This document shows positions 24,423 to 40,328 of a stretch of DNA of 64,000 nt, one piece after another; positions within the stretch are counted from its first letter, which is position 1; every line of letters begins with the position of its first letter. Source of the stretch: Stenotrophomonas sp. 610A2 (GTDB lineage: Bacteria; Pseudomonadota; Gammaproteobacteria; Xanthomonadales; Xanthomonadaceae). The DNA is taken from the NCBI RefSeq assembly GCF_030549615.1, contig NZ_CP130832.1, positions 3,906,001 to 3,970,000 on the forward strand, in the 5' to 3' direction. The position numbers and the translations under genes are program-made. The notes under the pieces are model-generated. The model had not been told where the DNA came from. It saw nothing but the letters and a program-made list of their open reading frames with translations, and ran no database searches.

Positions 24423-24439
24423 TTGGCACGCGATCTGCT
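24423..24439 (+). promoter_or_regulatory. Sigma-54 (-24/-12) promoter of the permease cassette
   Basis: TTGGCAC-GCGAT-CTGCT carries the invariant GG (24425-24426) and GC (24437-24438) ten bases apart and closely matches TGGCAC-N5-TTGCA. Transcription would start near 24450, giving a leader of about 23 bases before the ATG at 24473. Confidence 0.75.
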
Positions 24440-24472
24440 TAATGGATAACAAACCCAGCAGCGAAGCCGACG

Positions 24473-25741
24473 ATGATCCGCGACACCTCCGCCCAGGACC
24501 AGGTAAGTACCCAGCGCCCGCAACCCGTGTGGCGTCGCTACATGTGGCCGGCGTTGATCACCGTGGTGGTGGTCGCCGGCATTGGCTACGTCGTCAGCAA
24601 CTGGCTGGGCGCCAGCCGCTCGTTCGACGGTGACCGCCTGCGCATCGCCGAGGTCAAGCGCGGCGACCTGGTCCGCGACATCGCCGCCGATGGCCGCGTC
24701 ATCGCTGCCAACAGCCCGGTGCTGTACGCCATCTCCGCCGGTACCGTGACCTTGAAGGTGGTCGCCGGTGACGTGGTCAAGCAGGGCCAGGAGCTGGCGG
24801 TGATCGACAGCCCGGAACTGCGCAGCAAGCTGGCCCAGGAGCAGGCAACCCTGGCCGGCCTGGAAGCCGAAGCCAGCCGCGCCGCACTGGACGCCACCCT
24901 GGCCCGCGCCACCGGCGCCAAGCTGTCCGACCAGGCCGGACTGGTGCGCACCGCAGCCCAGCGCGACCTGGAACGCTACCAGCGCGGCTTCGATGGCGGC
25001 GCGGTGCCGCAGGTCGATCTGGCCAAGGCCCAGGACGAGCTGAAGAAAGCCCAGATCGAACTGCAGCACGCCCAGCAGGACGCCAGCCTGCAAAGCCAGG
25101 GAGCAACCCTGGATGCACGCAACAAGCGCCTGCTGGCCGATCGCCAGCAGGCGGTAGTGGACGAAGTGAAGCGCCAGGTCGATGCACTGACCCTGCGCGC
25201 ACCCTTCGATGGCCAGGTTGGCCAGGTGCAGGCCACCCAGCACACCCAGGTCGCCACCAACGCCCCGATCCTGGGCGTGGTCGATCTGTCGCGCTTCGAA
25301 ATCGAAATCAAGGTGCCGGAAAGCTTCGCCCGTGACCTGGCCATCGGCATGCCGGCCCAGCTCACCAGCGGTTCGGGCCAACCGTTCCCGGGTGAGATCG
25401 CCGCGGTGTCGCCGGAAGTGGTCAACGGCGAAGTCGTCGCCCGCCTGCGCTTCTCCGACAAGCAGCCGCCCGGCCTGCGCCAGAGCCAGCGCATGAGCGC
25501 ACGCATCCTGCTCGATACCCGCAACAACGTGCTCAAGGTCGAGCGCGGCCCGTTCGTCGAGCAGTCCGGTGGTCGCTACGCCTATGTACTGAGCGGCAGC
25601 ACCGCGGTGCGTCGCCCGATCCAGACCGGTGTCAGCAGCCTGGGCGAAGTTGAAATCGTCTCCGGCCTGCAGCCGGGCGAAAAGATCGTTGTCTCCGGTG
25701 CGGACCTGTTCGGCGATATCGAACGCGTATCGATCAATTGA
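24473..25741 (+). CDS. HlyD/MacA-type periplasmic adaptor (membrane fusion protein)
   Basis: 422 aa. A short cytoplasmic N-terminus, one membrane span (about 25-45, MWPALITVVVVAGIGYVVSNW), then a lipoyl-like half-motif (VLYAISAGTVTLKVVAGDVVKQGQELAVIDSPEL). A long alpha-hairpin follows (about 110-215), then the second half (LRAPFDGQVGQVQATQHTQV) and beta-barrel/membrane-proximal domains. Such adaptors link an inner-membrane ABC exporter to an outer-membrane channel. First gene of the cassette, behind the sigma-54 promoter. No TolC-like gene is in the cluster, so an outside channel would be needed. Confidence 0.9.
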   Translation: MIRDTSAQDQVSTQRPQPVWRRYMWPALITVVVVAGIGYVVSNWLGASRSFDGDRLRIAEVKRGDLVRDIAADGRVIAANSPVLYAISAGTVTLKVVAGDVVKQGQELAVIDSPELRSKLAQEQATLAGLEAEASRAALDATLARATGAKLSDQAGLVRTAAQRDLERYQRGFDGGAVPQVDLAKAQDELKKAQIELQHAQQDASLQSQGATLDARNKRLLADRQQAVVDEVKRQVDALTLRAPFDGQVGQVQATQHTQVATNAPILGVVDLSRFEIEIKVPESFARDLAIGMPAQLTSGSGQPFPGEIAAVSPEVVNGEVVARLRFSDKQPPGLRQSQRMSARILLDTRNNVLKVERGPFVEQSGGRYAYVLSGSTAVRRPIQTGVSSLGEVEIVSGLQPGEKIVVSGADLFGDIERVSIN

Positions 25742-25750
25742 TTCAAAGCC

Positions 25751-25833
25751 GGGAGTCGAGAGTCGGGGTGAAGAAGCTGCAGTTGTCCGGGTTGTCGTGA
25801 ACCCTGCCGCCAACGCTGAAACGCTCGACTCCC
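25751..25833. repeat. Inverted repeat in the adaptor-ATPase gap
   Basis: GGGAGTCGAG (25751-25760) and its exact complement (25824-25833) flank 63 bases in the 169-base gap between adaptor and ATPase genes. No gene is seen in the gap. It could form an mRNA stem that lowers downstream expression; that function is a guess. Confidence 0.4.
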
Positions 25834-25910
25834 TGGCCCCCGCCCAACTGCTGCTCTGCTTCACCGTCCCGCTCCACCATCCACATTCCCCGTCGCTGAA
25901 AGGAATACCC

Positions 25911-26636
25911 ATGCTCCATATGCAATCCGTCTCCAAGGTCTTCCGTACCGAACAGGTCGAAACCCATGCGCTGCGTTCGCTGGACCTGCATGTGCGCGAA
26001 GGCGAATTCGTCGCGGTCACCGGCCCCTCGGGCTCGGGCAAGACCACCTTCCTCAACATCGCCGGCCTGCTGGAAACCTTCACCAGCGGCCAGTACCTGC
26101 TTGATGGCCAGGACGTCAGCCACCTCGGCGATGACGCCCGCTCGCGCCTGCGCAACCAGAAGATCGGCTTCATCTTCCAGGGCTTCAACCTGATCCCCGA
26201 CCTCAACCTGTTCGACAACGTCGATGTGCCGCTGCGCTACCGCGGCATGCCGTCGGCCGAGCGCAAGCAGCGCATCGAGAAGGCCTTGAGTGATGTCGGC
26301 CTGGGTTCGCGCATGAAGCACTACCCGGCAGAACTGTCCGGCGGTCAGCAGCAGCGTGCGGCAATCGCCCGCGCCCTGGCTGGCAGCCCGCGCCTGCTGC
26401 TGGCCGACGAACCGACCGGTAACCTCGATACGCAGATGGCACGTGGCGTCATGGAGCTGCTGGAGGAGATCAACAGCCAGGGCACCACCATCGTCATGGT
26501 GACCCATGATCCGGAACTGGCCGCACGCGCCCAGCGCAACGTGCACATCGTCGATGGCCAGGCCACCGACCTGATCCGCGAGCCGGTGCTGGCCCACGCC
26601 GCGCGCATCGCCGCCGTTGCCGACAACCAGGGCTGA
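25911..26636 (+). CDS. ABC transporter ATP-binding protein (MacB/LolD type)
   Basis: 241 aa. The ATG at 25911 has AAAGGAAT upstream. Walker A GPSGSGKTT (38-46), Q-loop (GFIFQGFNLIPDLN), signature LSGGQQQR, Walker B LLLADEPTGNLD and H-loop (VMVTHDPELAAR) are all intact. It is the only ATPase in the cassette and is followed after 8 bases by the first of eight permease genes, so it probably energises all of them. By family such ATPases drive mechanotransmission-type export or extraction of substrates from the inner membrane or periplasm, not transport across the inner membrane. Confidence 0.95.
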   Translation: MLHMQSVSKVFRTEQVETHALRSLDLHVREGEFVAVTGPSGSGKTTFLNIAGLLETFTSGQYLLDGQDVSHLGDDARSRLRNQKIGFIFQGFNLIPDLNLFDNVDVPLRYRGMPSAERKQRIEKALSDVGLGSRMKHYPAELSGGQQQRAAIARALAGSPRLLLADEPTGNLDTQMARGVMELLEEINSQGTTIVMVTHDPELAARAQRNVHIVDGQATDLIREPVLAHAARIAAVADNQG

Positions 26637-26644
26637 TCGCGCGC

Positions 26645-27976
26645 ATGTCGCTGTTTGCCTACCACCTCCGCCAAGGCCTGCGCAGTCTGCGCCGCACTCC
26701 CGTGCTCACCGCACTGATGGTCCTGTCGATTGCGATGGGCATTGGTGCATCGATGACCACGCTGACGGTAAAGCACCTGCTCTCCGGCGATCCCCTGCCC
26801 GGTCGCAGTGGGCAGATCTATTACCCGCAGGTGGATGCATCGGTGCGGGGTGAGCGGGCCCGCCGCGAACCGTTGGACATGCTCGACTACACCTCGGCGA
26901 CGGACCTGTGGCGTGACGGTCCTGCCGATCGCAAGGCTTTGGTGGTGGACAGCCCCGTCAAGTTATCCGCTCCCGGTAGCCAAGAGCCGGCGATGATGAC
27001 CACGTTGCTGTCCACCACCGCCGATTTCTTCCCGATGTTCCAGGTACCGATGGCCTACGGCGCCGGCTGGTCGGCCGAGGATGACCAGCGCCGCGCCCGC
27101 GTGGCGGTGATCTCCTCGGAGTTGAACCAGCGCCTGTTCGATGGCAAGGACAGCACCGGCAAGATGCTGCGCATCCGCGGCAGCGAAGTGCGCATCATCG
27201 GCGTGCTCAAGCCGTGGCGTCCATCGCCCCTGTTCTACACCGTCGCCGGTGGCCGCTTCGCACAGGGCGATACGGCCGACTACTACCGTCCGGTCGAAGA
27301 CGTGATGGTGCCGTTCTTCACCGGCCTGCAGATCAACGCCGGCAACTTCCAGCAGTTCACCTGCAACACGCTGCCGGAGAAGCCGGGCCATCTGGAAAAC
27401 ACCGACTGCGTGTGGCTGCAGTTGTGGGTGCAGTTGAACGACGCGGCCAAGGTCACTGCCTACCAGCAGCACCTGCAGGCCTATGTGCAGCAACAACAGC
27501 AGCTGGGCCGCATCAGCCAGCCAGAGCTGATGCGCCTGCGCAGCCTGATGGAGTGGATGGATTACAACGGCGTGGTGCCGCGTGACGTCAAGCTGCAGGC
27601 ATGGATCGCGCTGGCCTTCCTGGTGATCTGCCTGTTCAACACCATCGGCCTGCTGCTGGCCAAGTTCCTGCGCCGCACCGGCGAGATCGGCGTGCTGCGC
27701 GCACTCGGCGCGACCCGCGCGATGGTGTTCCAGCAATGCCTGATAGAGGCGGCGCTGATCGGTGTTGGCGGCGCGGTGCTGGGATTGCTGTTCACCCTGA
27801 TCGGGCTGTGGAGCATCCGCCAGCAGCCACTGGCCTATGCCGACATGGTGCAGCTGGACATGACCATGCTTGGTATCACCTTCGCCACCGCAGTGGTGAC
27901 CACCGTAATTGCTGGACTGCTGCCGGCGCTGCGCGCCGCCCGCATCGATCCGGCCCTGCAGATCAAGGCGCTGTAA
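26645..27976 (+). CDS. FtsX/MacB-like ABC permease, type A (pair 1)
   Basis: 443 aa. N-terminal span (TALMVLSIAMGIGASMTTL), a large periplasmic MacB-PCD domain (about 45-310), then three C-terminal spans with the coupling segment KFLRRTGEIGVLRALGATRAMVF; ends ARIDPALQIKAL. The periplasmic domain has a Cys pair 14 residues apart just before a Trp (C...DCVWLQLW), found in all four type A proteins here. It is followed after 3 bases by the type B gene, suggesting a heterodimer. Confidence 0.92.
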   Translation: MSLFAYHLRQGLRSLRRTPVLTALMVLSIAMGIGASMTTLTVKHLLSGDPLPGRSGQIYYPQVDASVRGERARREPLDMLDYTSATDLWRDGPADRKALVVDSPVKLSAPGSQEPAMMTTLLSTTADFFPMFQVPMAYGAGWSAEDDQRRARVAVISSELNQRLFDGKDSTGKMLRIRGSEVRIIGVLKPWRPSPLFYTVAGGRFAQGDTADYYRPVEDVMVPFFTGLQINAGNFQQFTCNTLPEKPGHLENTDCVWLQLWVQLNDAAKVTAYQQHLQAYVQQQQQLGRISQPELMRLRSLMEWMDYNGVVPRDVKLQAWIALAFLVICLFNTIGLLLAKFLRRTGEIGVLRALGATRAMVFQQCLIEAALIGVGGAVLGLLFTLIGLWSIRQQPLAYADMVQLDMTMLGITFATAVVTTVIAGLLPALRAARIDPALQIKAL

Positions 27977-27979
27977 GCG

Positions 27980-29203
27980 ATGACCCTGGACATCAAACCC
28001 ATCATCAGCACGTTGTCGCGGCATCGCATCGCCGCAAGCCTGATCGTGCTGGAAATCGCGCTGGCCTGCGCGGTGCTGTGCAATGCCCTGTTCCTGGCCG
28101 CCTCGCGGATGGAGCTGATCGGCATGAACAGCGGCGTCGACGAGGCTTCCATCGCGACACTGAGCCTGCTCGACTGTGACTCCTGCAAAGAGGTGGACGT
28201 GAACAGCCGCTGGTTGCAGCAGCTTCGTGGCCAGGCCGGCGTACAGGCGGTGGGTGTACTCAACGCCGTACCGTTTGGCCAGCGCGCCGGCACCGCTGGC
28301 GTCTCGCTGGATCGGGAAGGCAAGCACCATGGCGGCGTGCCGCATTTCTACCTGATGGATGCAGGCGCCATCGACGCTTTGCAATTGAAGCCGGTGCAGG
28401 GCCGCATGTTCAACGAGGCCGACTACCAGCCGGTGGAGAATTTCCTGCCCGCGAATGCCCAGGTATGGATCACCCAGGCCTTTGCCAAGCACCTGTGGCC
28501 GGATCAGGACCCGCTGGGCAAGCAGTTGTGGATGGGCGACTACCAGCTCACCGTGGCCGGTGTACTGGCGCATTTCTCGCGCCCGGACCCGGGCCGCAGC
28601 GAGAACGGTCTGGCTGGTATGGAGTGGTCGGTGATCGTGCCGGTGACCACCGATGCGCAGGCAGGTACCTATGTGATGCGTGCCAACCCGCGTGACCTGC
28701 AACGCATCGTCAGCGACGCCGTCGCCGCCGCGCCCAAGGTCACGCCGGAGGCGATCATCTCCGCCGACTACAGCAAGACGCTGCAGCAACTGCGCGAGGT
28801 CTACTTCCAGCAGGACCGCAGCATGACCCGCCTGCTGCTTGGGATCTGCCTGGTGATGCTGCTGGTCACCGCGCTGGGCATCATCGGTCTGGCCAGCTTC
28901 TGGGTGCAGCAACGCACCAAGCAGATCGGCGTGCGCCGCGCACTGGGTGCGACACGCCGCCAGATCATCAGCTACTTCCAGACCGAAAACCTGCTGCTGA
29001 CCACGGCCGGCATCGCCATCGGCATGTTGCTGGCCTATGCCGGCAACCTGCTGCTGATGAATTACTTCGAAATTCCCCGGCTGCCGCTGTATTACCTGCC
29101 GCTGGGTGCCGTACTGCTGTTCCTGCTGGGCCAGGCCGCCGTCATCGGCCCTGCCCTGCGTGCTGCTTCCATCCCGCCCATCGTCGCCACGCGCAGCGCC
29201 TGA
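27980..29203 (+). CDS. FtsX/MacB-like ABC permease, type B (pair 1)
   Basis: 407 aa with the same four-span plan, but of a second subfamily: N-terminus TLDIKPIISTLSRHRIAASL and span LIVLEIALACAVLCNALFL. C-terminal coupling region GLASFWVQQRTKQIGVRRALGATR; end SIPPIVATRSA. Unlike the other three type B proteins it has a C-x-x-C in the periplasmic domain (LLDCDSCKEV). Likely partner of the preceding type A protein. Confidence 0.92.
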   Translation: MTLDIKPIISTLSRHRIAASLIVLEIALACAVLCNALFLAASRMELIGMNSGVDEASIATLSLLDCDSCKEVDVNSRWLQQLRGQAGVQAVGVLNAVPFGQRAGTAGVSLDREGKHHGGVPHFYLMDAGAIDALQLKPVQGRMFNEADYQPVENFLPANAQVWITQAFAKHLWPDQDPLGKQLWMGDYQLTVAGVLAHFSRPDPGRSENGLAGMEWSVIVPVTTDAQAGTYVMRANPRDLQRIVSDAVAAAPKVTPEAIISADYSKTLQQLREVYFQQDRSMTRLLLGICLVMLLVTALGIIGLASFWVQQRTKQIGVRRALGATRRQIISYFQTENLLLTTAGIAIGMLLAYAGNLLLMNYFEIPRLPLYYLPLGAVLLFLLGQAAVIGPALRAASIPPIVATRSA

Positions 29204-29220
29204 GCTGCCAAGGATCGTCC

Positions 29221-30525
29221 ATGTTCAGTTACTACTTCAAACTTGCGCTGCGCAGCTTCGGCCGCAACAAGATCCTGACCGCACTGATGGTGTTGGCCAT
29301 CGCGCTCGGCATCGGTGCGGCGATGACCACCTTGACGGTGTTCAAGGTGCTCTCCGGCGACCCGATCCCGCACAAGAGCGATCGCCTGTTCTATGTGCAG
29401 CTGGATCCCTACACCAAGGAAGGCTACAAGCCGGGCGAAGAGCCCGAGATGCAGATGACGCGCTTCGACTCCGAAGAACTGCTGCGGCAGAAGAAGGCGC
29501 CGCGCCAGGCAATGATGACCGGCGGCGGCGGCATCGTCGATCCGCGCATCGACGCACTCAAGCCCTTCAGCATCAGCATGCGTTACACCTCTGCCGACTT
29601 CTTCCCGATGTTCGATACGCCGTTCGCGTTCGGCCAGGGCTGGAGCAGCGACGAGGACCAGGGCCGCAGCCGCGTCGCGGTGATCAGCGACACCCTCAAT
29701 GACAAGTTGTTCAAGGGCGAAAACAGCGTCGGCAAGGAAGTACTGGTCGAAGGCAATGCCATGCGCATCGTCGGCGTGCTCAAGGAATGGAAGCCTGCTC
29801 CCAAGTTCTACGACCTGTACTCGGGCAAGTTCGACTCCGAGGAGGATGTCTACCTGCCCTTCAGCACCGCGCTGGAACTCAAGCTGGGCCGCAATGGCAG
29901 CATGAACTGCTTCGGCCGCGAGCTGGTCAATGACGCCACCGCACTGAATGTGCCGTGCTCGTGGATCCAGTACTGGGTCGAGCTGAACTCGCCCGGCGAT
30001 GCCAAGGACTTCAAGGCCTACCTGGACAACTACTCCGAGCAGCAGCGCACTGCCGGCCGCTTCGAGCGCCCGGCCAACACCCGCCTGCGTGATGTCATGG
30101 ACCTGATGGAATACCGCAACGCAGTGCCGGGCGACGTGCGCCTGCAGATGTGGCTGGCCTTCGGCTTCCTGCTGGTCTGCCTGGTCAATACCGTTGGCCT
30201 GTTGCTGGCCAAGTTCCTGCGTCGCAGCGGTGAGATCGGCGTGCGCCGTGCACTGGGCGCCAGCCGCGCCGAAATCTTCAAGCAGTGCCTGATCGAGGCC
30301 GGCACGATTGGCCTGGCCGGCGGCCTGCTCGGACTGGTATTCGCCTTGTTTGGCCTGTGGGCGGTACGCCAGCGGCCGGCCGAATACGCCTCGCTCGCCC
30401 ACCTGGATGGCTCGATGCTGCTGGTCACCTTCGCCCTGGCGGTGCTGGCCAGCATGCTGGCCGGCATCCTGCCTGCCTGGCGCGCCATGCAGGTAACCCC
30501 GGCATTGCAGCTCAAGAGCCAGTAA
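29221..30525 (+). CDS. FtsX/MacB-like ABC permease, type A (pair 2)
   Basis: 434 aa, starting MFSYYFKLALRSFGRNKILT. N-terminal span LMVLAIALGIGAAMTTL, a periplasmic domain with a Cys pair 15 apart (MNC...PCSWIQYW), and three C-terminal spans with KFLRRSGEIGVRRALGASRAEIF; ends QVTPALQLKSQ. Closest by eye to the type A protein of pair 3, suggesting tandem duplication of a gene pair. ATCGTCC separates it from the pair 1 gene; the ribosome site is weak (AAGGATC). Confidence 0.92.
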   Translation: MFSYYFKLALRSFGRNKILTALMVLAIALGIGAAMTTLTVFKVLSGDPIPHKSDRLFYVQLDPYTKEGYKPGEEPEMQMTRFDSEELLRQKKAPRQAMMTGGGGIVDPRIDALKPFSISMRYTSADFFPMFDTPFAFGQGWSSDEDQGRSRVAVISDTLNDKLFKGENSVGKEVLVEGNAMRIVGVLKEWKPAPKFYDLYSGKFDSEEDVYLPFSTALELKLGRNGSMNCFGRELVNDATALNVPCSWIQYWVELNSPGDAKDFKAYLDNYSEQQRTAGRFERPANTRLRDVMDLMEYRNAVPGDVRLQMWLAFGFLLVCLVNTVGLLLAKFLRRSGEIGVRRALGASRAEIFKQCLIEAGTIGLAGGLLGLVFALFGLWAVRQRPAEYASLAHLDGSMLLVTFALAVLASMLAGILPAWRAMQVTPALQLKSQ

Positions 30526-30533
30526 CGCCATTA

Positions 30534-30575
30534 CCCCCTCCCTTGCGCAACGCGCAGGGGAGCGCCGGGGAGGGG
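30534..30575. repeat. GC-rich hairpin in the pair 2 gap
   Basis: CCCCTCCC (about 30535-30542) pairs with GGGGAGGGG (30567-30575), with an inner TGCGC/GCGCA stem. It lies in the 128-base gap between the type A and type B genes of pair 2. A related C-rich/G-rich hairpin is at 59641-59671. Possibly a mobile palindromic repeat that attenuates or stabilises the mRNA. Confidence 0.5.
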
Positions 30576-30653
30576 TGCTTTGGCAGTTGCTCTCGCCCTC
30601 GCCTCTCCCAACCAAACCCCATTCCCAGCTCCACGCTTCCCCGGAGAAACCTC

Positions 30654-31877
30654 ATGGAAATCCGCCCCATCCTCTCCACGCTGTCGCGGCACAAGACAGC
30701 CGCCGCACTGATCGTGCTGGAGATCGCGCTGAGCTGCGCCATCATCTGCAACGCACTGTTCATCGTGTCGCAGCGCATCGACGCCATGCAGCTGGCAAGT
30801 GGCATCGATGACAACCACCTGATCGAAATCGGCCTGAGCGGCATTGGTGAGCAGGTTGATGCCGACGCCCGCACTGCCGAGGACATCGCCTCGCTGCGCG
30901 GCATCCCCGGCGTCGAGAGCGTGGCCATCGTCAACCAGCTGCCGTTCCAGGGCGGCTCCTGGAACACCTCACTGGCAGCCACCGCGGAGCCCGAAGCGCA
31001 GTCGATCAATGGCGCCCAGTACATGGTGGGCGAGAACGCGCTCAAGACCCTGGGAGTCAAGCTGGTCGCCGGCCGCGATTTCAATGCCGATGAATACCAG
31101 AGCAGCGATGTACTGGAGAAGGTGGAAGACCTGGGCAAGCTGAAAGCACCGGCCATCCTCACCGAAGCCATGGCCAAGCAGTTCTTCCCGGACGGCAATG
31201 CGGTGGGCAAGACCCTGTACATGGCCAACATCCCGGTCACCGTGGTGGGCGTGGCGCAGACCCTGCTGCGGCCGAACATGCAGAACAACAACCGCACGTA
31301 TTCGATCATCTTCCCGATCCGCATGAACTTCTCCAACGGCGGCCGCTACATCCTGCGCGTCACCGAGCAGGGACGCCGTGACGAGGTGCTGAAGCAGGCG
31401 CTGGCGACGCTGGACAAGAACGATCCGAACCGCCTGGTCTGGACCAAGCAGACCGTTGAGGAGAAGCGTGCCAAGAACTTCGCCAATGACCGCGACATGA
31501 TCGGCCTGCTGCTGATCGTCAGTGGCCTGCTGTTGCTGGTAACCGCGCTGGGCATCATCGGCCTGGCCAGCTTCTGGGTGCAGCAGCGCACCAAACAGAT
31601 CGGCATCCGTCGTGCGCTGGGTGCCACCCGCGCGCAGATCCTGCGTTACTTCCAGACCGAGAACTTCCTGCTCGCCGGCATCGGCATCGTGGTCGGCATG
31701 CTGCTGGCCTACCTGCTCAACCAGTGGCTGATGGGCCGCTACGAGCTGCCGCGCCTGCCGCTGCTGTACCTGCCGGTGGGTGCGGTGCTGCTGTGGCTGC
31801 TGGGTCAGATCGCGGTGTTCGGCCCGGCCCGCAAGGCCGCATCGATTCCACCGGCGGTGGCTACCCGCAGCACCTGA
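30654..31877 (+). CDS. FtsX/MacB-like ABC permease, type B (pair 2)
   Basis: 407 aa; the ATG at 30654 has CGGAG upstream and matches the paralogues' N-terminus (MEIRPILSTLSRHKTAAALIVLEIALSCAI..., first 20 residues enough to place it). The periplasmic domain lacks the C-x-x-C of pair 1. The C-terminal region has GLASFWVQQRTKQIGIRRALGATR and ends SIPPAVATRST. Same length as its pair 1 paralogue. It follows the hairpin-bearing gap, the largest between permease genes. Confidence 0.92.
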   Translation: MEIRPILSTLSRHKTAAALIVLEIALSCAIICNALFIVSQRIDAMQLASGIDDNHLIEIGLSGIGEQVDADARTAEDIASLRGIPGVESVAIVNQLPFQGGSWNTSLAATAEPEAQSINGAQYMVGENALKTLGVKLVAGRDFNADEYQSSDVLEKVEDLGKLKAPAILTEAMAKQFFPDGNAVGKTLYMANIPVTVVGVAQTLLRPNMQNNNRTYSIIFPIRMNFSNGGRYILRVTEQGRRDEVLKQALATLDKNDPNRLVWTKQTVEEKRAKNFANDRDMIGLLLIVSGLLLLVTALGIIGLASFWVQQRTKQIGIRRALGATRAQILRYFQTENFLLAGIGIVVGMLLAYLLNQWLMGRYELPRLPLLYLPVGAVLLWLLGQIAVFGPARKAASIPPAVATRST

Positions 31878-31899
31878 TCTGAAAGCGCAAGGAAGGGAC

Positions 31900-33210: not shown

Positions 33211-33271
33211 CGCGGTGGCATTGAATCCCCCCCGTCAGCAACGGCAGCTTTCGCCGCCACGGAGAACACCT

Positions 33272-34489
33272 TTGGACATCCGCCCTACCCTGTCGATGCT
33301 GTCCCGCCAGAAGATTGCCGCACTGCTGGTGGTGTTCGAGATCGCGATCAGCTGCGCCATCATCTGCAACGCTGTTTTCATCATCAGCAACCGCGTTGCG
33401 CAGATCCAGCTGCACAGTGGCGTGGCCGAGGATGAGCTGGTCTACCTGGCCACCAGCAGCCTGCTGCCGGACGTCAACTACGACGCCCTGCGCAAGCAGG
33501 ACCTGGCGGCACTTGCCGCCGTACCCGGCGTAAAGGCAGTCAGCAGCATCAACCAGATTCCTTATGGCAGCAATGTCTGGGGCTCGGGCATACGCCTGCT
33601 GTCGGAGCAGACGCGCCCAACCGTACACGCCACCAATTACATGGACGACGGCCAGTTGCTGCCGACGTTTGGCCTGCGAGTGCGCGAGGGTCGCGCATTC
33701 AAGCCCGACGAATACCTGGAGAACAGCGCCTTCGTCGGTGGCGACGCCGATCCTGTAGTACCCAGCGTGCTACTGAGCCACGCGTTGGCCAACACCCTGT
33801 TCCCGAACGGCAATGCGGTGGGCAGGAATATCTATGTCTGGGGCAACAAACCGACCCAGGTGGTGGGCCTGATCGATGATCTGCTGGCACCGGGCCAGGC
33901 TGGCGAGTTCAGCGGCCGCTTTGACAGCATGGTATTCCCGGTCCGCGTTTCCAACGGTGCCTATGCCCTGCGCACCAGCCCGGAACTGCGCGAGTCCGTA
34001 TTGAAGGCGGCCATTGCCGCACTCAACAAGGCCGACCCCAACCGCATCATCGAGGAACAGGGCACGGTGGCGCGCATGCGCGATGACTTCCATCATCGCG
34101 ATCGCTCGGTGATCTGGCTGCTGCTGGCGGTCTGCATCGCACTGTTGGCGGTCACCGCGTTCGGCATCGTCGGCCTTGCCAGCTTCTGGGTGCAGCAGCG
34201 CACGCGCCAGATCGGCATACGTCGTGCCCTGGGGGCAACCCGCAAGCACATCCTGCGCGCTTTCCAGCTGGAGAACCTGCTGCTGAGCAGCGCCGGCATC
34301 GTCGTCGGCCTGCTTCTGGCCTATGCACTGAACATATTGCTGATGAGCCGCTACGAGCTACCGCGGCTGCCATTGATGTACCTGCCCATCGCGGCGGTAC
34401 TGCTGTTGCTGCTGGGGCAGATCGCCGTGCTTGGCCCCGCGCGGCGCGCGGCGTCGGTGCCACCGGCGGTGGCCACACGCGCTGCCTGA
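33272..34489 (+). CDS. FtsX/MacB-like ABC permease, type B (pair 3)
   Basis: 405 aa from a TTG at 33272. That start is chosen because GGAG lies 7 bases upstream and the length and N-terminus (LDIRPTLSMLSRQKIAALLV) then match the other type B proteins; an upstream ATG at 33215 would add 19 poorly conserved residues. Spans and coupling region (GLASFWVQQRTRQIGIRRALGATR) are intact and the end is SVPPAVATRAA. No periplasmic C-x-x-C. Confidence 0.88.
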   Translation: MDIRPTLSMLSRQKIAALLVVFEIAISCAIICNAVFIISNRVAQIQLHSGVAEDELVYLATSSLLPDVNYDALRKQDLAALAAVPGVKAVSSINQIPYGSNVWGSGIRLLSEQTRPTVHATNYMDDGQLLPTFGLRVREGRAFKPDEYLENSAFVGGDADPVVPSVLLSHALANTLFPNGNAVGRNIYVWGNKPTQVVGLIDDLLAPGQAGEFSGRFDSMVFPVRVSNGAYALRTSPELRESVLKAAIAALNKADPNRIIEEQGTVARMRDDFHHRDRSVIWLLLAVCIALLAVTAFGIVGLASFWVQQRTRQIGIRRALGATRKHILRAFQLENLLLSSAGIVVGLLLAYALNILLMSRYELPRLPLMYLPIAAVLLLLLGQIAVLGPARRAASVPPAVATRAA

Positions 34490-34519
34490 TCACTTTTGAA
34501 TGCTTACTGGAGTCGCCCA

Positions 34520-35011
34520 ATGAAAACCAAGCTGACCTGCCTGCTGCTGATGCTCTGCTCGCTACCGTTGATGTCCGCGCATGCCGCTGATGCCGACAAC
34601 GCCAGCCTGCACGACACCATCGCCGCACTCGATCACGGCATGTTCGATAGCTTCAATCACTGCAGCGATCCAGCCCAGTTCGAAAGGCATGCGGGCTATT
34701 TCGATACGGCGGTCGAGTTCTACCACGACAATGGCGGTGTCACCTGGACCCGCGACGCCATGCTGGCGAACACCCGCAAGCACGCCTGCGGCAACTACAC
34801 CCGGCAGTTGCTGCCAGGCACGCTGGAGGTATTCCCGATCAAGGACTTCGGCGCCATCGAACAAGGCCAGCACCAATTCTGCGATCTGAAGGGCGAACAC
34901 TGTGATGGCGTGGCCGACTTCGTCATCATCTGGCGCCTGCGTGATGGTCAGTGGCAGGCAACGCGGGTCCTGAGCTATGCGCACCGCGCAGCGGCAGGAC
35001 CCACGCCATGA
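34520..35011 (+). CDS. Secreted NTF2-like (DUF4440-type) protein inside the permease array
   Basis: 163 aa; ATG at 34520 with GGAG upstream. Signal peptide (MKTKLTCLLLMLCSLPLMSA, cleavage near AHA), then one NTF2/SnoaL-like domain (TIAALDHGMFDSFNHCSD, FYHDNGGVTWTRDAMLANTR, VADFVIIWRLRDGQWQATRV). Four Cys in the mature part suggest one or two disulfides in the periplasm. Its stop overlaps the start of the next permease (ATGA), so it belongs to the cassette. A ligand-binding or enzymatic role is possible; none can be assigned. Confidence 0.8.
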   Translation: MKTKLTCLLLMLCSLPLMSAHAADADNASLHDTIAALDHGMFDSFNHCSDPAQFERHAGYFDTAVEFYHDNGGVTWTRDAMLANTRKHACGNYTRQLLPGTLEVFPIKDFGAIEQGQHQFCDLKGEHCDGVADFVIIWRLRDGQWQATRVLSYAHRAAAGPTP

Positions 35012-36339
35012 ACTACACGCTGGAAACCGGACTGCGTGGTTGCATCCGCCACCCAAGGACGATGGCACTCGTCGTACTCACCCTTGCCCTGGGCCTGGCC
35101 TCGGTGATGACCATGCTCACGCTATTGTCGGTATTGGCCGCCGACCCGCTGCCCGGCATCAGCCACAACCTGCACCTGGCCTGGGCAGACTCACGCGAGG
35201 CGGCAAAAAGTGGTGAAAGCGACAGCTACGGTGACGGCTCCCCGGTGCCGCCACTGTGGAAGCTGGCCGACGTGCAGGCGATGCGCCAGCTACGCCCGGA
35301 TGTCCCGCAGGTGGCCTTGCTCACCGCCCCGCTGACCGTCAGCAACATCGACAACACGCTCAGCAAGAACGTTTCGACGAGCCTGGCCATCGGCCCGATG
35401 CTGCAGGTATTCGGCGTACCGCTGCGCTACGGGCGTTCCTGGACAGCGGAAGAAGAAGCCGCACGTACACCGGTGGTGATCATCAGCCGCGCACTCAGCC
35501 AGCACCTGCTGGGGCGCGAAGACGGCACCGGCGCCGAGATCCGTGTGGGCAAGCACAACTTCCGCGTCATCGGCATCAGCGAGCGCTGGGCGCCGCGTCC
35601 GCGCCCGCATTTTCTGCCTTCAAACAATGCCGGCTGGGAAGGCGATGGCGATGAGCTGTTCGCACCCGCCGAGGCGGTGCTGGCGTCAGGCGCGGAGATC
35701 ACCAGCACCCGCATCTGCGATGGCAATGGCTTCGGCGGCTTCCGCTTCGATCAGATCGACACCCAGCAATGCCGCTGGCTGGTGCTGTGGGCGGAATTGA
35801 AGGATGCACAGCAGCGCGACAACTACGCACAAAGCCTGCAGAGTTTTGCTGCCGATCGCCATGCCGCTGGCATATTCGCGCGCGCAGCCAACACCCGCCT
35901 GCAATCGATGGCGCAGTGGTTGCATACCAACCGCGTGGTGCCAGACAGCGTGCGCTTGAACCTGTGGCTTGCAACGGGCTTGTTGGTGCTGTGCCTGGTC
36001 AATGTCGCCGGCCTGCTGGCAGCGCGCTTCCTGCGCCGTGCCGGTGAGCACGGTGTGCGCCGGGTGCTGGGTGCGCCGCGTGGCGCCATCATCGCCGCCT
36101 GTCTGGTCGAGTCCACCCTGGCGGGCTTGCTGGGCGGATTGCTGGCATTGCCGCTGACGCTGGGCGGCCTGTGGCTGATGCGGCAACAAGGTGAAGCCTA
36201 CTCATCACTGGCCCGGCTGAGCCCTGCGCTGTTTGCGGGCCTGCTGTTGATGGCGGTTGTGACTGGCGTGGTCGTTGGACTGCTACCCGCCATCCGTGCC
36301 GCGCGCCAGGAACCCGCGTTGCAGGTCAAAACCCTATGA
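35008..36339 (+). CDS. FtsX/MacB-like ABC permease, type A (pair 4)
   Basis: 443 aa; the ATG at 35008 overlaps the stop of the NTF2-like gene. It is the most divergent type A protein (MNYTLETGLRGCIRHPRTMA) but keeps the plan: span LVVLTLALGLASVMTML, a periplasmic domain with a Cys pair 17 apart (ICDG...QQCRWLVLW), and coupling region RFLRRAGEHGVRRVLGAPRGAI; ends ARQEPALQVKTL. Its divergence and the separate neighbour suggest it is an older or differently specialised pair. Confidence 0.9.
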   Translation: MNYTLETGLRGCIRHPRTMALVVLTLALGLASVMTMLTLLSVLAADPLPGISHNLHLAWADSREAAKSGESDSYGDGSPVPPLWKLADVQAMRQLRPDVPQVALLTAPLTVSNIDNTLSKNVSTSLAIGPMLQVFGVPLRYGRSWTAEEEAARTPVVIISRALSQHLLGREDGTGAEIRVGKHNFRVIGISERWAPRPRPHFLPSNNAGWEGDGDELFAPAEAVLASGAEITSTRICDGNGFGGFRFDQIDTQQCRWLVLWAELKDAQQRDNYAQSLQSFAADRHAAGIFARAANTRLQSMAQWLHTNRVVPDSVRLNLWLATGLLVLCLVNVAGLLAARFLRRAGEHGVRRVLGAPRGAIIAACLVESTLAGLLGGLLALPLTLGGLWLMRQQGEAYSSLARLSPALFAGLLLMAVVTGVVVGLLPAIRAARQEPALQVKTL

Positions 36340-36352
36340 AAAAGGCCAAGGC

Positions 36353-37573
36353 ATGAATCCCCTGCTCTCCTCCATGCGCCGCCAGCCGCTGATGCCCTGG
36401 TTGATCGTGCTGCAGATCACCGTGGCCTGCGCCATCCTTTGCAATACCCTGTTCCTGCTGGCACAGCAGGCCGGGCCGTTGTTGATCGACGACGGCATCG
36501 CCGACAAGGAAGTCATCGTCATCGACCAGATCGTGCGCCCGGATGGCAACTGGACCGCCGCACAAGCCAGCGCCGGTGCCGATGCACTGGCAGCAATTCC
36601 AGGCGTGAAGCGTGCTACCGCGGTGGTCGGCGCACCGATGCGCGAGACCTTGACCATGGTCTACGACCTCAAGCCAGCCAACGGCCCAACCGTGCAGGCC
36701 AGCGGCTTCATTGGAACGAAGCTGATCGACACGCTTGGCCTGCAGCTCAGCCGTGGCCGCGACTTCCTCGCCGACGAATACGCCGACCTGCAGCTCGGTG
36801 ATGATGCAAACGCTGCCAGCACGCCCATCATCATCACCGAGGCTTTGGGCCGAATCCTGTTCGATGGCAATCCGGTCGGGCAGGCGCTCACCTCTGGCGA
36901 TGGCAGCAGCCACTATGTAGTCGTCGGTGTTGTCGCCCACCTGCTGCGCTACCAGCTCAGCGAGTTGGACGACGGCAAAGCCGAGTACGCCATCCTGTTG
37001 CCACGGCGTCCGGCCGGCTTGCCACTACTGAGTTTCGTGGTACGCGCCGAGGCCGATCAGCGCGATGCGGTGATCAAGGCCGCGCCCGGCGTACTGCAGA
37101 CGGTCTATGCCGGGCAGATGGCGAAGAGCTTCAACCCGGTCGTGTCCAGTTACGAGCAGTTGCGCAGCAACGGCATGCGCAACCGCCGCGCAGCGGTATG
37201 GCTGCTGCTCACGGTCAACGCGGTTGTCGCCACCATCACCTTGATCGGCATCGCCAGCCTCAGCGGCTACTGGATACAGCAACGCACCCGCCAGATCGGC
37301 ATCCGCCGTGCCCTCGGCGCCACTCGCAGCCAGGTGATGCGCCACTTCCTCGCCGAGAACCTGCTGCTGACCGTCGGTGGGCTGCTGATCGGCCTGCTGC
37401 TGGCGTTGCTGATCAACCAGTGGTTGATGCAGCATTACGAGCTGCCACGGCTGCCATGGGCCTACCTGCTGGTTGCCGGCGGCTTGATGTTGCTGCTCGG
37501 GCAAGTCGCGGTCGCGGCACCGGCACGGCGTGCAGCGCAATTGCCACCTGCCAGCGCGACCCGCAGCGTGTAA
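36353..37573 (+). CDS. FtsX/MacB-like ABC permease, type B (pair 4)
   Basis: 406 aa; ATG at 36353 after AAGGCCAAGG. N-terminus MNPLLSSMRRQPLMPWLIVL; C-terminal coupling region SLSGYWIQQRTRQIGIRRALGATRSQV; end QLPPASATRSV. It completes the fourth A/B pair and is followed after 54 bases by the response regulator gene, still on the same strand. Confidence 0.92.
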   Translation: MNPLLSSMRRQPLMPWLIVLQITVACAILCNTLFLLAQQAGPLLIDDGIADKEVIVIDQIVRPDGNWTAAQASAGADALAAIPGVKRATAVVGAPMRETLTMVYDLKPANGPTVQASGFIGTKLIDTLGLQLSRGRDFLADEYADLQLGDDANAASTPIIITEALGRILFDGNPVGQALTSGDGSSHYVVVGVVAHLLRYQLSELDDGKAEYAILLPRRPAGLPLLSFVVRAEADQRDAVIKAAPGVLQTVYAGQMAKSFNPVVSSYEQLRSNGMRNRRAAVWLLLTVNAVVATITLIGIASLSGYWIQQRTRQIGIRRALGATRSQVMRHFLAENLLLTVGGLLIGLLLALLINQWLMQHYELPRLPWAYLLVAGGLMLLLGQVAVAAPARRAAQLPPASATRSV

Positions 37574-37627
37574 TGTGCTGACTTCAGCGCCAGCGCTGCG
37601 TCCCCTCATATCCTTCTGCGACAACCG

Positions 37628-38965
37628 ATGCCACAGATCCTGATCATCGACGACAACACCGCCGTGGCCACCGCGTTGGACGTGCTGTTCTCCCTGCACG
37701 ACATCGACACCCGCCACGCCACCTCGCCCGAGCAGGGCCTGGCGATGCTGGCCGAGCATGAATTCGATCTGGTCCTGCAGGACATGAACTTCACCGCCGA
37801 CACCACTTCCGGCGAGGAAGGCCAGGATCTGTTCCGGCGCATCCGCCAGGCGCATCCGGACCTGCCGGTGATCCTGCTCACGGCGTGGACCCACCTGGAC
37901 AGTGCGGTGGAACTGGTCAAGGCCGGCGCCTCCGACTACCTGGCCAAGCCCTGGGATGACGGCCGCCTGCTGACCACGGTCAACAACCTGCTGGAACTGG
38001 CCGAGGCGCGGCGCGAGCTGGCCCGCCGCCGTGCCCGCGAGCAGCGCCAGCAGCAGGCCTTGCACGATCGCTACGATCTGCGCGGGCTGGTATTCGCCGA
38101 TCCGTCCAGCGAGCGCATCATCGCCCTCGCCTGCCAGGTCGCGCGCTCCGAGCTGCCGGTGCTGATCACCGGTCCCAACGGTGCCGGCAAGGAAAAGATC
38201 GCCGAGATCATCCAGGCCAACTCGGCGCACAAGAAAGGCCCGTTCGTCGCGCTGAACTGCGGCGCCATTCCCTCCGAGTTGATCGAGGCCGAACTGTTCG
38301 GTACCGAGGCCGGCGCCTACACCGGCGCCAACAAGGCCCGCGAGGGCAAGTTCGAGGCAGCCGATGGCGGCACCTTGTTCCTGGATGAGATCGGCAACCT
38401 GTCGCTGACCGGGCAGATGAAACTGCTGCGCGTGCTGGAGACCGGACGCTTCGAGCGACTGGGTTCCAACCGCGAACGGCAGGTCAAGGTCCGCGTGGTC
38501 AGTGCCACCAATGCCGACCTGCCAGCAATGATCCGCGCCGGCAGCTTCCGCGAAGATCTCTACTACCGGCTCAATACCGTCGAGCTGAGCCTGCCGCCGC
38601 TGGCCGAACGGCGCGAGGACATCCTGCCGCTGGCGCAATACTTCCTCGCCGATGGCAAGCCGCTGTCGGCACCTGCGCTACATGCACTGCAGCGCCACAA
38701 CTGGCCGGGCAATGTGCGCGAGCTGCGCAATGTGATCCAGCGCGCCGCCCTGCTTGCGCAGGGCCCGCGCATTGAAGTTGCCGACCTGAACCTGCCACGC
38801 GCGCCCGCGCGCCCCACCGCAGCTGCAGACGAACCCGATCGCGAGCACATCGTCAGCGCGCTGGAGCGTGCCGGCGGCGTCATCGCCCAAGCCGCCGCCG
38901 AGCTCGGCCTGAGCCGGCAGGCGCTATACCGTCGTATGGATCGCCACGGCATCCCGCGCGAGTGA
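37628..38965 (+). CDS. NtrC-type sigma-54-dependent response regulator
   Basis: 445 aa. The receiver domain (1-120) has D8/D9, phosphoacceptor D52 (LVLQDMNF) and K107. The AAA+ domain (about 150-385) has Walker A GPNGAGKE (182-189), a GAYTGA loop (229-234, a Tyr variant of GAFTGA that contacts sigma-54) and Walker B LFLDE (250-254). A Fis-type helix-turn-helix closes it (AGGVIAQAAAELGLSRQALYRRMDRHGI). It must work at sigma-54 promoters. The one found at 24423 heads its own cassette, preceded by palindromic sites, so positive autoregulation is likely. Partner kinase 10 bases downstream. Confidence 0.95.
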   Translation: MPQILIIDDNTAVATALDVLFSLHDIDTRHATSPEQGLAMLAEHEFDLVLQDMNFTADTTSGEEGQDLFRRIRQAHPDLPVILLTAWTHLDSAVELVKAGASDYLAKPWDDGRLLTTVNNLLELAEARRELARRRAREQRQQQALHDRYDLRGLVFADPSSERIIALACQVARSELPVLITGPNGAGKEKIAEIIQANSAHKKGPFVALNCGAIPSELIEAELFGTEAGAYTGANKAREGKFEAADGGTLFLDEIGNLSLTGQMKLLRVLETGRFERLGSNRERQVKVRVVSATNADLPAMIRAGSFREDLYYRLNTVELSLPPLAERREDILPLAQYFLADGKPLSAPALHALQRHNWPGNVRELRNVIQRAALLAQGPRIEVADLNLPRAPARPTAAADEPDREHIVSALERAGGVIAQAAAELGLSRQALYRRMDRHGIPRE

Positions 38966-38975
38966 GCACCGATCA

Positions 38976-40328
38976 GTGAAAACGCGCTCCTTTACCTTCA
39001 CCCTGTTCCTGCGCCTGCTGCCGGTGCTGGCGCTGGCTGCGGCCTTGCCGTGGTTCCTGGCCTACTGGATGGATCGCGGTTGGGTGGTGGTGAGCGTTTC
39101 CACCGTGTTCCTGCTGGCTGCGATGTGGTGGGCGCTGAGTCGCGCCACCGCGCCGATCCGCTCGCTGCTGCGGGCACTGGCCGGCACCACCAGCAGTTAC
39201 CGCGATGGCGAATTCAACTTCGGTGTGCATTGGCGCGGCCATGACGAATTCGCACAGCTGGTGCAGGCCCATGCCGAGCTGGGTGATGTGCTGCGCGAGC
39301 AGCGGCAATCGCTGGTGCAGCGCGAGCTGCTGCTCGACACCATGGTGCAGAACACGCCGGTAGCAATGCTGCTGCTCACCGATGGTGGCGATGGCGTACA
39401 GCGTGTGACCTTCTCCAACACTGCGGCACGCAAGCTGCTGCACGGTGGCTGGAAGCTTGAAGGCCAGCGCATGCACGAGTTGCTGGAGAACATGCCGATC
39501 GAGCTGCGCAATGCCATCGCCCGCGGCGGCGACAGCCTGTTCGCGGTGCGTGATCCGGATGCGGCCGAAGACGATGATGACGACGAGCAGATCTACCACC
39601 TGTCGCGTCGTGCCTTCCATTTGAATGGTCGCCCGCACGAATTGCTGCTGCTGCGCCTGCTCACCGCCGAGCTGCGCCGCCAGGAAGTGCAGACCTGGAA
39701 GAAGGTGATCCGTGTCATCAGCCATGAACTCAATAATTCGTTGGCACCGATTGCCTCGCTGGCGCATTCCGGCGCCGAACTGGTACGACGCGGCCGCCAT
39801 GATCGTCTTGAAGATATCTTCGGCACCGTGGAAGAACGCGCGCGTCACCTGGAGGGTTTCATTCGTGGTTATGCGCGCTTTGCCAAGCTGCCGCAGCCGC
39901 AGCTGCAGACCGTTGCCTGGAGCCAATTCCTGCATGGTCTGCAGCAGCAGATCCATTTCCGGATGGCGCCGATGGTCGACGAGCAGTACAGCCGCCTGGA
40001 TCAATCACAGTTCTCGCAGGCGTTGCTGAACCTGCTGAAGAATGCGCACGAAGCAGGCGCCGACAATGGCGCGCCGGATGATTCGGTGGAAGTTCGCATC
40101 GCGCGACTGCCCAACTGGCTGCGCATCGAGGTATTGGATCGCGGCACCGGCATGAACGAGGCGGTGCTGCAGAACGCCTTGATGCCGTTCTATTCAACCA
40201 AGCGCAATGGCACGGGTTTGGGTTTGGCATTGACCCGCGAGATCATCGAAGCACATGGCGGTCGCATCTCATTGCAGAACCGCAAGGACGGCGGCCTGTG
40301 CGTGGCGATCCTGCTGCCGCATGACTAA
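38976..40328 (+). CDS. Membrane sensor histidine kinase (NtrY/PilS-like)
   Basis: 450 aa from a GTG at 38976. Two membrane spans (about 11-30 and 36-52) with almost no periplasmic loop, then a HAMP-like linker and a PAS-like domain (about 118-230) with an acidic run (EDDDDDEQ). The HisKA box has H250 (RVISHELNNSLAPI). The ATPase domain has N (LLNLLKNAHEAG), G1 (VLDRGTGM) and G2 (GTGLGLALTREI) boxes. With so small an outside loop it probably senses within the membrane or through the permeases, as known for some efflux-linked kinases; that is inference. Confidence 0.93.
   Translation: MKTRSFTFTLFLRLLPVLALAAALPWFLAYWMDRGWVVVSVSTVFLLAAMWWALSRATAPIRSLLRALAGTTSSYRDGEFNFGVHWRGHDEFAQLVQAHAELGDVLREQRQSLVQRELLLDTMVQNTPVAMLLLTDGGDGVQRVTFSNTAARKLLHGGWKLEGQRMHELLENMPIELRNAIARGGDSLFAVRDPDAAEDDDDDEQIYHLSRRAFHLNGRPHELLLLRLLTAELRRQEVQTWKKVIRVISHELNNSLAPIASLAHSGAELVRRGRHDRLEDIFGTVEERARHLEGFIRGYARFAKLPQPQLQTVAWSQFLHGLQQQIHFRMAPMVDEQYSRLDQSQFSQALLNLLKNAHEAGADNGAPDDSVEVRIARLPNWLRIEVLDRGTGMNEAVLQNALMPFYSTKRNGTGLGLALTREIIEAHGGRISLQNRKDGGLCVAILLPHD

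What the first reader, a model, noticed from the sequence alone, without database searches (positions are those of the whole stretch)
24423..40328. Sensor-controlled export cassette with one ATPase and four A/B pairs of FtsX/MacB-like permeases
Seen: adaptor, a single ATPase, then permeases in strict order A1-B1-A2-B2-A3-B3-(NTF2-like)-A4-B4, then an NtrC-type regulator and kinase, all on one strand. Types A and B differ consistently: A starts with a YYLQLAWRGFGRNK-type sequence and ends PALQxKS; B starts IRPILSTLSR and ends PPAVATR. Known: MacB-type systems are usually one homodimer or one pair per ATPase. Inference: the ATPase powers several alternative heterodimers for a set of related substrates, such as antimicrobial peptides or envelope lipids. 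I do not know a described system with this build.
Basis: partly seen in the sequence, partly recalled or inferred. Interest (0 to 1): 0.75.

Follow-up and report, generated by a model that had tools for sequence, protein, structure and literature searches.

The report
One-motor, many-permease export operon
A bacterial export operon pairs a single ATP-burning motor with four different two-part membrane pumps under one switch; relatives carry one to twelve such pairs, which suggests a modular pump set, probably for peptides, in which the pumping parts are exchangeable and the motor is shared.

Summary
Window 24473-40328 holds adaptor, one ATPase, A1-B1-A2-B2-A3-B3-(NTF2-like)-A4-B4, NtrC-type regulator and kinase. 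A and B match the N- and C-terminal halves of the duplicated ADOP permease (TIGR03434); A2 and B2 model as MacB-type permeases. I collected 108 distinct A-B loci, nearly all Lysobacterales. The 65 complete arrays have 1 to 9 pairs; another has 12, its end not reached. All 80 loci with the adaptor in view have exactly one ATPase; 697 of 703 neighbouring permeases alternate. A and B trees agree (r = 0.91; within-array shuffles at most 0.28). One sigma-54 promoter, often with a TGTCCGCGGACA enhancer, precedes the adaptor and almost never the other genes. Of 15 A-B pairs studied elsewhere in these genomes 14 lack an ATPase of this family nearby; three carry the same enhancer and a promoter-like element. 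Split or fused ADOP permeases lie near 21 of 25 class III lanthipeptide synthetase loci. Best reading: a MacB-like exporter whose one ATPase/adaptor module serves several dedicated A-B heterodimers, probably for peptides. Sharing and substrate are inferred. The window genome lacks that synthetase, so its own substrates are unknown. New variant of a known kind.

The parts
24359..24370 (+). enhancer-like palindrome CGTCCGCGGACA (1 mismatch to TGTCCGCGGACA), probable binding site of the NtrC-type regulator
   Evidence: <=1 mismatch copy upstream of the adaptor in 46 of 65 loci with enough upstream sequence, 0 of 65 shuffled; binding itself inferred
24424..24439 (+). sigma-54 (-24/-12) promoter element TGGCACGCGATCTGCT
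   Evidence: scores 22 of 25; >=22 in 58 of 65 adaptor upstreams, 0 of 65 shuffled (consensus recalled)
24473..25741 (+). periplasmic adaptor (membrane fusion protein), MacA-like
   Evidence: TIGR01730 137 bits over cut-off 94.9; best PDB relative MacA (5nik)
25911..26636 (+). the only ATPase, with Walker A, signature, Walker B and H-loop motifs (motif names recalled)
   Evidence: best model darobactin exporter DarD 261 bits (cut-off 375, not reached); 5xu1/LolD/MacB; motifs
26645..27976 (+). permease A1
   Evidence: MacB_PCD + FtsX; ADOP positions 4-400
27980..29203 (+). permease B1
   Evidence: FtsX + weaker MacB_PCD; ADOP positions 410-802
29221..30525 (+). permease A2
   Evidence: AF2 model pLDDT 84.9, top fold match MacB 5gko
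30654..31877 (+). permease B2
   Evidence: AF2 model pLDDT 91.2, top fold match MacB 5gko
31900..33210 (+). permease A3
33215..34489 (+). permease B3
34520..35011 (+). NTF2-like (DUF4440) protein with an apparent signal sequence (by eye)
   Evidence: PF14534 29.2 bits; relatives in 10 of 65 complete arrays
35008..36339 (+). permease A4
   Evidence: ADOP positions 7-399
36353..37573 (+). permease B4
   Evidence: FtsX; ADOP positions 410-801
37628..38965 (+). NtrC-type response regulator with receiver, sigma-54 activator domain (GAYTGA) and Fis-type HTH
38976..40328 (+). sensor kinase; two predicted membrane segments about 12 residues apart, so no periplasmic sensor domain

Best explanation
A MacB-type (type VII) envelope export system with a shared motor. 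One ATPase and one MacA-like adaptor form a common module; each adjacent A-B pair is a dedicated permease heterodimer equivalent to one split ADOP protein, and the pairs dock alternatively onto the same ATPase. Their conserved coupling segments (A: FLRRsGEIGVRRALGAsR, B: WVQQRTkQIGIRRALGATR) contact the motor, while the fast-evolving periplasmic domains select different cargoes, most likely peptides taken from the periplasm or inner-membrane surface and moved outward with a TolC-like channel. The terminal kinase has no periplasmic sensor domain, so it probably reads a signal inside the membrane or cytoplasm or the state of the transporter, phosphorylates the NtrC-type regulator, and switches on the whole operon from one sigma-54 promoter. 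Shown: gene order, single ATPase, near-strict alternation, pair-wise co-divergence, the promoter/enhancer signature, satellite pairs without a nearby family ATPase. Inferred: motor sharing, heterodimers, peptide cargo, sensing route.
For: One ATPase in 80 of 80 loci with the adaptor, with 1 to 12 pairs. 697 of 703 adjacent permeases alternate; of the six exceptions three are partial hits (L100, L109, L117) and three a full extra B (L063, L073, L094). A-B distances r = 0.914 over 206 pairs; within-array shuffled partners mean 0.16, max 0.28, 0 of 500 reach it. Paralogues in one array keep the coupling segment (75% A, 78% B identity) more than the periplasmic domain (40%, 31%). Sigma-54 element before the adaptor in 58 of 65, before A, B, R or K in at most 2.7%; palindrome in 46 of 65, 0 of 65 shuffled. 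14 of 15 satellite A-B pairs have no ATPase of this family in the fetched stretch; three of the 15 have the palindrome plus a promoter-like element. A genome scan for that signature led to further A-B pairs (L284, L286, L293). ADOP-type permeases lie within about 9 kb of 21 of 25 class III lanthipeptide synthetase loci, in 9 of 10 genera, against a rough upper bound of 1.3 expected. Relatives' arrays include a TolC-family channel (8 of 108), DUF885 (13 of 65 complete) or S33 hydrolase genes (2 of 65 complete).
Against: No binding or transport data. Pair co-divergence would also follow from linkage alone, if pairs duplicate as units. 12 of 15 satellite pairs lack the palindrome. Satellite L178 and the LanKC-linked pair in L232 have their own close ATPase (401, 388 bits), so some pairs need not share; L161 sits behind an MsbA-type exporter with its own NBD, and L180 and L181 have a divergent NtrC-type gene near (262, 252 bits). 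Fused-ADOP arrays in the same family sometimes have a second ATPase (G036, G040, L155). The window genome has no class III LanKC and no relative of the co-regulated small-peptide family at E <= 0.01, so the peptide link is by relatives only. The adaptor lacks the canonical R-x3-L-x6-S TolC-docking motif (motif recalled), and no outer-membrane channel gene lies in the window operon. At equal membrane-domain identity the paralogues' periplasmic domains are only slightly more diverged than between-array pairs, and mainly in the top bins.
Confidence: 0.6

Rival explanations
1. Ordinary MacAB-like drug or peptide efflux in which one pair does the work and the other pairs are recent or decaying duplicates kept as a reservoir.
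For: Pair number varies between close relatives (1 to 4 within the genus); pairs seem to duplicate as units.
Against: Position-specific orthologues are kept across species (window pairs 1-4 each have near relatives in the same position in L043, L025, L048); all eight window genes are open and keep the coupling segment; partial permeases inside arrays are few (L100, L109, L117 among 108 loci).
Confidence: 0.15
2. Envelope lipid or lipoprotein trafficking (LolCDE-like), given that A-B resembles LolC-LolE and the operon lies between glmS and glmU.
For: LolF/LolCDE are among the sequence and fold relatives; the ATPase resembles LolD; glmS and/or glmU lie beside 38 of the 108 loci.
Against: MacB ranks above Lol in both sequence and fold; Lol systems lack a MacA-type adaptor (recalled); no Dyella or Rhodanobacter locus showed glmS/glmU within the held flanks, so the site looks incidental; the lanthipeptide linkage points to peptides.
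Confidence: 0.1
3. Sensing and detoxification module like BceAB-BceRS: the permeases mainly detect and remove antimicrobial peptides and signal to a kinase without a sensor domain.
For: Of 57 kinases 32 resolved two membrane segments, with loops of 3-13 residues in 31 and 63 in one; 25 unresolved. BceAB transporters are described as co-evolved with two-component systems (PMC5985334, passages seen); BceB is among the fold relatives.
Against: Bce systems lack adaptor and channel and use other regulator types (recalled); the kinase carries a cytoplasmic stretch before its catalytic part that might sense instead. This rival differs from the best explanation mainly in purpose and could be the same machine, so the two odds overlap.
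Confidence: 0.35
4. The permeases do not depend on the operon ATPase: other cellular ATPases, or none (orphan ADOP), serve them.
For: ADOP was named for orphan permeases (recalled); 14 of 15 satellite pairs have no family ATPase nearby.
Against: The ATPase gene is kept in 80 of 80 loci with the adaptor; coupling segments stay conserved across 206 pairs.
Confidence: 0.1

Closest known systems
MacAB-TolC (type VII ABC exporter)
   Same: MacA-like adaptor, MacB-type fold of A and B, TolC-family gene in some relatives' arrays
   Different: MacB is a fused NBD-permease homodimer (recalled; review PMC5985334 seen in passages); here the NBD is separate and up to 12 A-B pairs follow it
ADOP duplicated permeases (TIGR03434)
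   Same: A = N-terminal half, B = C-terminal half, same order
   Different: split into two genes; about 140-206 bits per half, below the family cut-off 622; ADOP was described as lacking associated ATPases (recalled)
Darobactin exporter DarBCD
   Same: the ATPase model DarD is the best NCBIfam hit (261 bits); duplicated permease, adaptor, separate ATPase
   Different: below the DarB/C/D cut-offs; one permease only (recalled)
LolCDE
   Same: one ATPase serving a heterodimer of two related 4-TM permeases
   Different: one pair only, no MacA-type adaptor (recalled), different cargo
BceAB-BceRS
   Same: FtsX-type transporter with a kinase lacking a periplasmic sensor (recalled in part)
   Different: single 10-TM permease, no adaptor, no array (recalled in part)
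Group II ECF transporters / MsmK-type shared ATPases (recalled)
   Same: one energising module shared by several substrate-specific membrane parts
   Different: importers, unrelated permease folds
SmaCDEF of S. maltophilia (smlt1651-4)
   Same: ABC exporter of the same genus
   Different: the three loci examined around hits of one published smaCDEF primer (1-2 mismatches; L168-L170) hold no A- or B-type permease at >= 12 bits; the identification of the locus by one primer is tentative

Membership tests
MacB / type VII ABC exporters | 4-TM permease with a periplasmic core domain between TM1 and TM2 and a MacB fold | tested here: met
   four hydrophobic segments in A2 and B2; top fold hit 5gko for both (TM by query 0.63, 0.67). 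The other six permeases were not modelled
MacB / type VII ABC exporters | MacA-type adaptor | tested here: met
MacB / type VII ABC exporters | works with a TolC-type channel | tested here: inconclusive
   TolC-family gene in 8 of 108 loci, none in the window operon; docking motif not canonical
MacB proper | NBD fused to permease, homodimer | tested here: not met
   separate ATPase gene, two permease types
ADOP (TIGR03434) | two permease halves in one protein, score above 622 bits | tested here: not met
   halves in separate genes, about 140-206 bits each; the A1-B1 stretch together 343 bits
Darobactin exporter | scores over the DarB/DarC/DarD cut-offs | tested here: not met
   28.7 of 700 (B1), 56.5 of 450, 261.5 of 375 bits
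Sigma-54/NtrC-controlled operon | -24/-12 element and an enhancer upstream, activator with GAFTGA-type motif | tested here: met
   by sequence only (consensus and motif recalled); activity not tested
Shared-ATPase system (ECF group II-like working) | several different permeases bind one ATPase | not testable with these tools
   genome evidence only:

The most novel reading that the evidence does not exclude
An export counterpart of group II ECF transporters: one MacB-family energising module (ATPase + adaptor) powers a genome-wide set of interchangeable A-B heterodimers, in cis up to 12 pairs in one sigma-54 operon and in trans as satellite pairs without an ATPase, some under the same enhancer. 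In relatives these pairs are tied to lanthipeptide genes, and the same enhancer also precedes a new family of 27-73 residue peptides with one hydrophobic segment and, in most, a C-terminal Cys pair (CALPPDGVVC) that may be cargo.
Probability: 0.5. Interest if true: 0.85.

Novelty: new variant of a known kind. Interest (0 to 1): 0.72.

Why it matters
If the motor is shared, MacB-family exporters would join the few ABC systems in which one ATPase serves many membrane parts (others recalled), and such a modular exporter could be taken apart pair by pair: the number of pairs varies from 1 to 12 among relatives, a natural series for asking what decides substrate range. It also gives a genome handle (sigma-54 element plus TGTCCGCGGACA) for finding cargo genes of a system whose substrates are unknown, and ties ADOP-type permeases to peptide export or immunity.

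Tried and rejected
Considered and rejected: chance or annotation artefact (108 distinct A-B loci); mixing of A and B; hidden extra ATPases inside arrays; membership of SmaCDEF (tentative, one primer, four of the listed hit regions fetched); lipid trafficking as first choice; the glmS/glmU neighbourhood as functional.

Led nowhere or weak: paralogue-versus-between-array divergence of the periplasmic domain gives only a slight effect. An enhancer scan of the window genome is uninformative: 18 places at <= 1 mismatch against 12 for the reversed control, and the window itself has no exact copy. 12 of 15 satellite pairs lack the palindrome. In the joint tree the clade with all 64 B also holds all 48 fused-ADOP halves and no A, so whether A-B arose by splitting of these fused forms is open. 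In the relatives looked at, trmL-, ubiJ- and ubiB-like genes follow the co-regulated small ORF; they may only lie downstream. Ten paper searches listed no paper that I recognised as describing this array; several were broad or nearly empty and the library is open-access only, so absence from print is not established. Papers seen: PMC5985334, PMC8277102, PMC11356428, PMC12189255 in passages only; all others as search listings only.

Dropped before counts: 7 of 115 loci as duplicates. The 65 complete arrays were required to alternate strictly; L100, complete but with an A in two partial hits, was left out for that. Partial arrays (47 strand rows) were not used for pair numbers. The 65 loci of the promoter and palindrome counts are those with enough upstream sequence, not the same set as the 65 complete arrays. 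The 108 loci include three from other orders of the class (L149, L150, L151) and three with a single A-B pair only (L040, L081, L099), of which L040 is a satellite. One search kept the best 80 of 442 relatives. The regions were chosen by me from listed matches, so pair-number frequencies and satellite frequencies are not an unbiased sample.
Full report
What is there. The window is part of a single-contig 4.68 Mb genome whose nearest named relatives by A1 are Stenotrophomonas (Stenotrophomonas sp. 96%, S. terrae 95%). Between glmS (22425-24257, -) and glmU (40977-42344, -) (gene names from domains) lies a + strand run of thirteen genes without internal stops. Pfam and NCBIfam identify a MacA/RND-type adaptor, an ABC ATPase, permeases with MacB_PCD and FtsX domains (B4 shows FtsX only; A2, B2, A3, B3 were not put to these libraries one by one), a DUF4440 (NTF2-like) protein, an NtrC-type sigma-54 activator and a histidine kinase. 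A and B are not two arbitrary kinds: A aligns to positions 4-407 and B to 408-802 of the 803-position ADOP duplicated-permease model, so one A-B pair equals one ADOP protein cut in two.

Conservation. A named-genome scan found 442 stretches encoding relatives, of which the best 80 were kept, all titled as Lysobacterales genera or as more broadly labelled MAGs. I annotated the loci and fetched regions and after dropping 7 of 115 duplicates had 108 distinct A-B loci. 65 are complete (adaptor to regulator, strictly alternating): 15 with one pair, 13 with two, 7 with three, 15 with four, 11 with five, 1 with six, 2 with seven, 1 with nine. L100 is complete but was left out because one A is in two partial hits. 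G133 has 12 pairs behind adaptor and ATPase, its 3' end not reached in the fetched stretch. In 80 of 80 loci with the adaptor there is exactly one ATPase at >= 250 bits, and a lower threshold found no other inside the spans except a 41-bit fragment at L040, itself a satellite. Of 703 neighbouring permease steps 697 alternate; L063, L073 and L094 contain a full extra B, L100, L109 and L117 partial hits. The sample was chosen by me from match lists, so the frequencies are descriptive.

Pairs. Over 206 pairs of the complete arrays the A tree and the B tree agree (r = 0.914); reshuffling partners within each array gives mean 0.16, maximum 0.28, 0 of 500 reaching it. The window's pairs 1-4 each have near relatives at the same position in other Stenotrophomonas arrays, so these paralogues are older than the species. 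Linkage alone could keep pairs together, so this supports but does not prove heterodimers. A joint tree of 64 A and 64 B separates them fully; the fused-ADOP halves fall on the B side of that split. Models of A2 and B2 (pLDDT 84.9, 91.2) match MacB 5gko best. The segment that in MacB relatives couples to the ATPase (role recalled) is among the best conserved parts of A and B: 75% (A) and 78% (B) identity between paralogues, against 40% and 31% in the periplasmic domain.

Control. A sigma-54 element (consensus recalled) precedes the adaptor in 58 of 65 loci with enough upstream sequence at score >= 22 of 25 (63 of 65 at >= 20), against 0 of 65 shuffled, and reaches that score before A, B, R or K in at most 2.7% and before P in none. 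The two exceptions below 20 (L149, L150) are from outside the order and show no regulator beside the operon. In the window the element is at 24424-24439. Further upstream lies a palindrome TGTCCGCGGACA, with <= 1 mismatch in 46 of 65, none of 65 shuffled, and 1 of 390 A upstreams; the window copy is 24359-24370 with one mismatch. The regulator keeps a GAYTGA loop. Of 57 kinases 32 resolved two membrane segments by a crude hydropathy scan, with loops of 3-13 residues in 31 and 63 in one; 25 were not resolved.

Pairs in trans. Fourteen regions away from a main operon hold 15 A-B pairs; only L178 has a close ATPase (401 bits), none shows the adaptor. L161 lies behind an MsbA-type exporter with its own NBD, L040 shows low-scoring ABC reading frames, and L180 and L181 have a divergent NtrC-type gene (262, 252 bits). 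Three of the 15 (L174, L184, L179b) carry both the palindrome and a sigma-54-like element; 12 lack the palindrome. A scan of 299 genomes for palindrome plus promoter hit 82, with 0 for the reversed control in the rows shown. Of 20 regions I chose and fetched, L283 was a main operon, L284, L286 and L293 start with an A-B pair, L281 with an NTF2-like gene, and L289 has an NTF2-like gene further down.

Peptide link. L161 and L178 lie in apparent operons with a class III lanthipeptide synthetase LanKC (NF038151, 640 bits for L161). LanKC occurs at E <= 1e-60 in 24 of 299 genomes, 25 loci, all fetched. Six have a split A-B pair nearby (L161, L178, L228, L232, L234, L236); 13 have an ATPase gene, a fused ADOP gene, NtrC and kinase genes directly beside LanKC (L214-L225, L227); two more have a fused ADOP gene nearby (L231, L233); four have neither (L226, L229, L230, L235). 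That is 21 of 25 loci and 9 of 10 genera, against a rough upper bound of 1.3 of 25 expected if each ADOP match covered its own 21 kb; 14 of the 25 loci are from one genus, so the genus count is the fairer one. Of the six split pairs two have an ATPase close to this family (L178, L232). Inside relatives' arrays sit DUF885 genes (13 of 65 complete arrays), S33-type hydrolases (2 of 65), and TolC-family channels (2 of 65 complete, 8 of all 108). That DUF885 acts as a peptidase is my reading of its HEGIPGHH motif, not a result.

A small-peptide family. Directly behind the promoter in 15 of the 20 regions is a short ORF, in most behind a GGAG-type ribosome site, of the type MKFExLMLRGLFVACLLVCGLVLGAMV...CALPPDGVVCPR; the two tested have no Pfam match. 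Relatives at E <= 0.01 occur in 65 of 299 genomes, 62 of them in one family (f12), the other three only at E about 0.003; none in the window genome or in the same-genus genomes listed. Comparing the lists by eye, 29 of the best 30 peptide loci lie within about 250 bases of such a promoter site. It may be cargo or a membrane regulator.

Parallel build. In the same family fused ADOPs form arrays of two to six behind one adaptor and ATPase (G036, G040, L154-L157), with an NtrC-type gene downstream in five of these six stretches; three (G036, G040, L155) have a second ATPase at the far end. So the many-permease build exists in two permease lineages.

Verdict. The operon is real, conserved and expanded as A-B units behind one ATPase. 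A shared motor for alternative heterodimers is the best reading; peptide cargo is likely from relatives but untested for the window's own array.

Noticed in passing
L274-L280, L282, L285, L287-L292 (behind the sigma-54 site): New family of 27-73 residue ORFs with one hydrophobic segment and, in most, a C-terminal Cys pair (CALPPDGVVC), sometimes in tandem, sharing the array's enhancer and promoter; relatives in 65 of 299 order genomes, none found in the window genome.
   Followed up: partly
L214-L225, L227: Class III lanthipeptide synthetase genes lie directly beside an ATPase, a fused ADOP permease, an NtrC-type regulator and a kinase gene; 13 loci of one genus.
   Followed up: partly
L041/L158 (G036), L152/L153 (G040), L154-L157: Arrays of two to six fused ADOP permeases behind one adaptor and ATPase, three with a second ATPase at the far end.
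   Followed up: partly
window 24473-24502 and relatives' adaptors: The adaptor's N-terminal tail mIRDTSaQD is strongly conserved in 75 adaptors aligned; role unknown.
   Followed up: no
L063, L073, L094: A full extra B-type permease without a partner A inside otherwise alternating arrays.
   Followed up: no
window 14539-22084 (-): Autotransporter with Fn3/Ig-type repeats, a DUF4347-Fn3 protein of 1114 residues and a sulfotransferase lie next to glmS.
   Followed up: no
L144 9281-9814: PDZ-domain protein between the last B and the regulator in a one-pair same-genus array; a similar gap of about 525 nt in L145, L146, L148.
   Followed up: no
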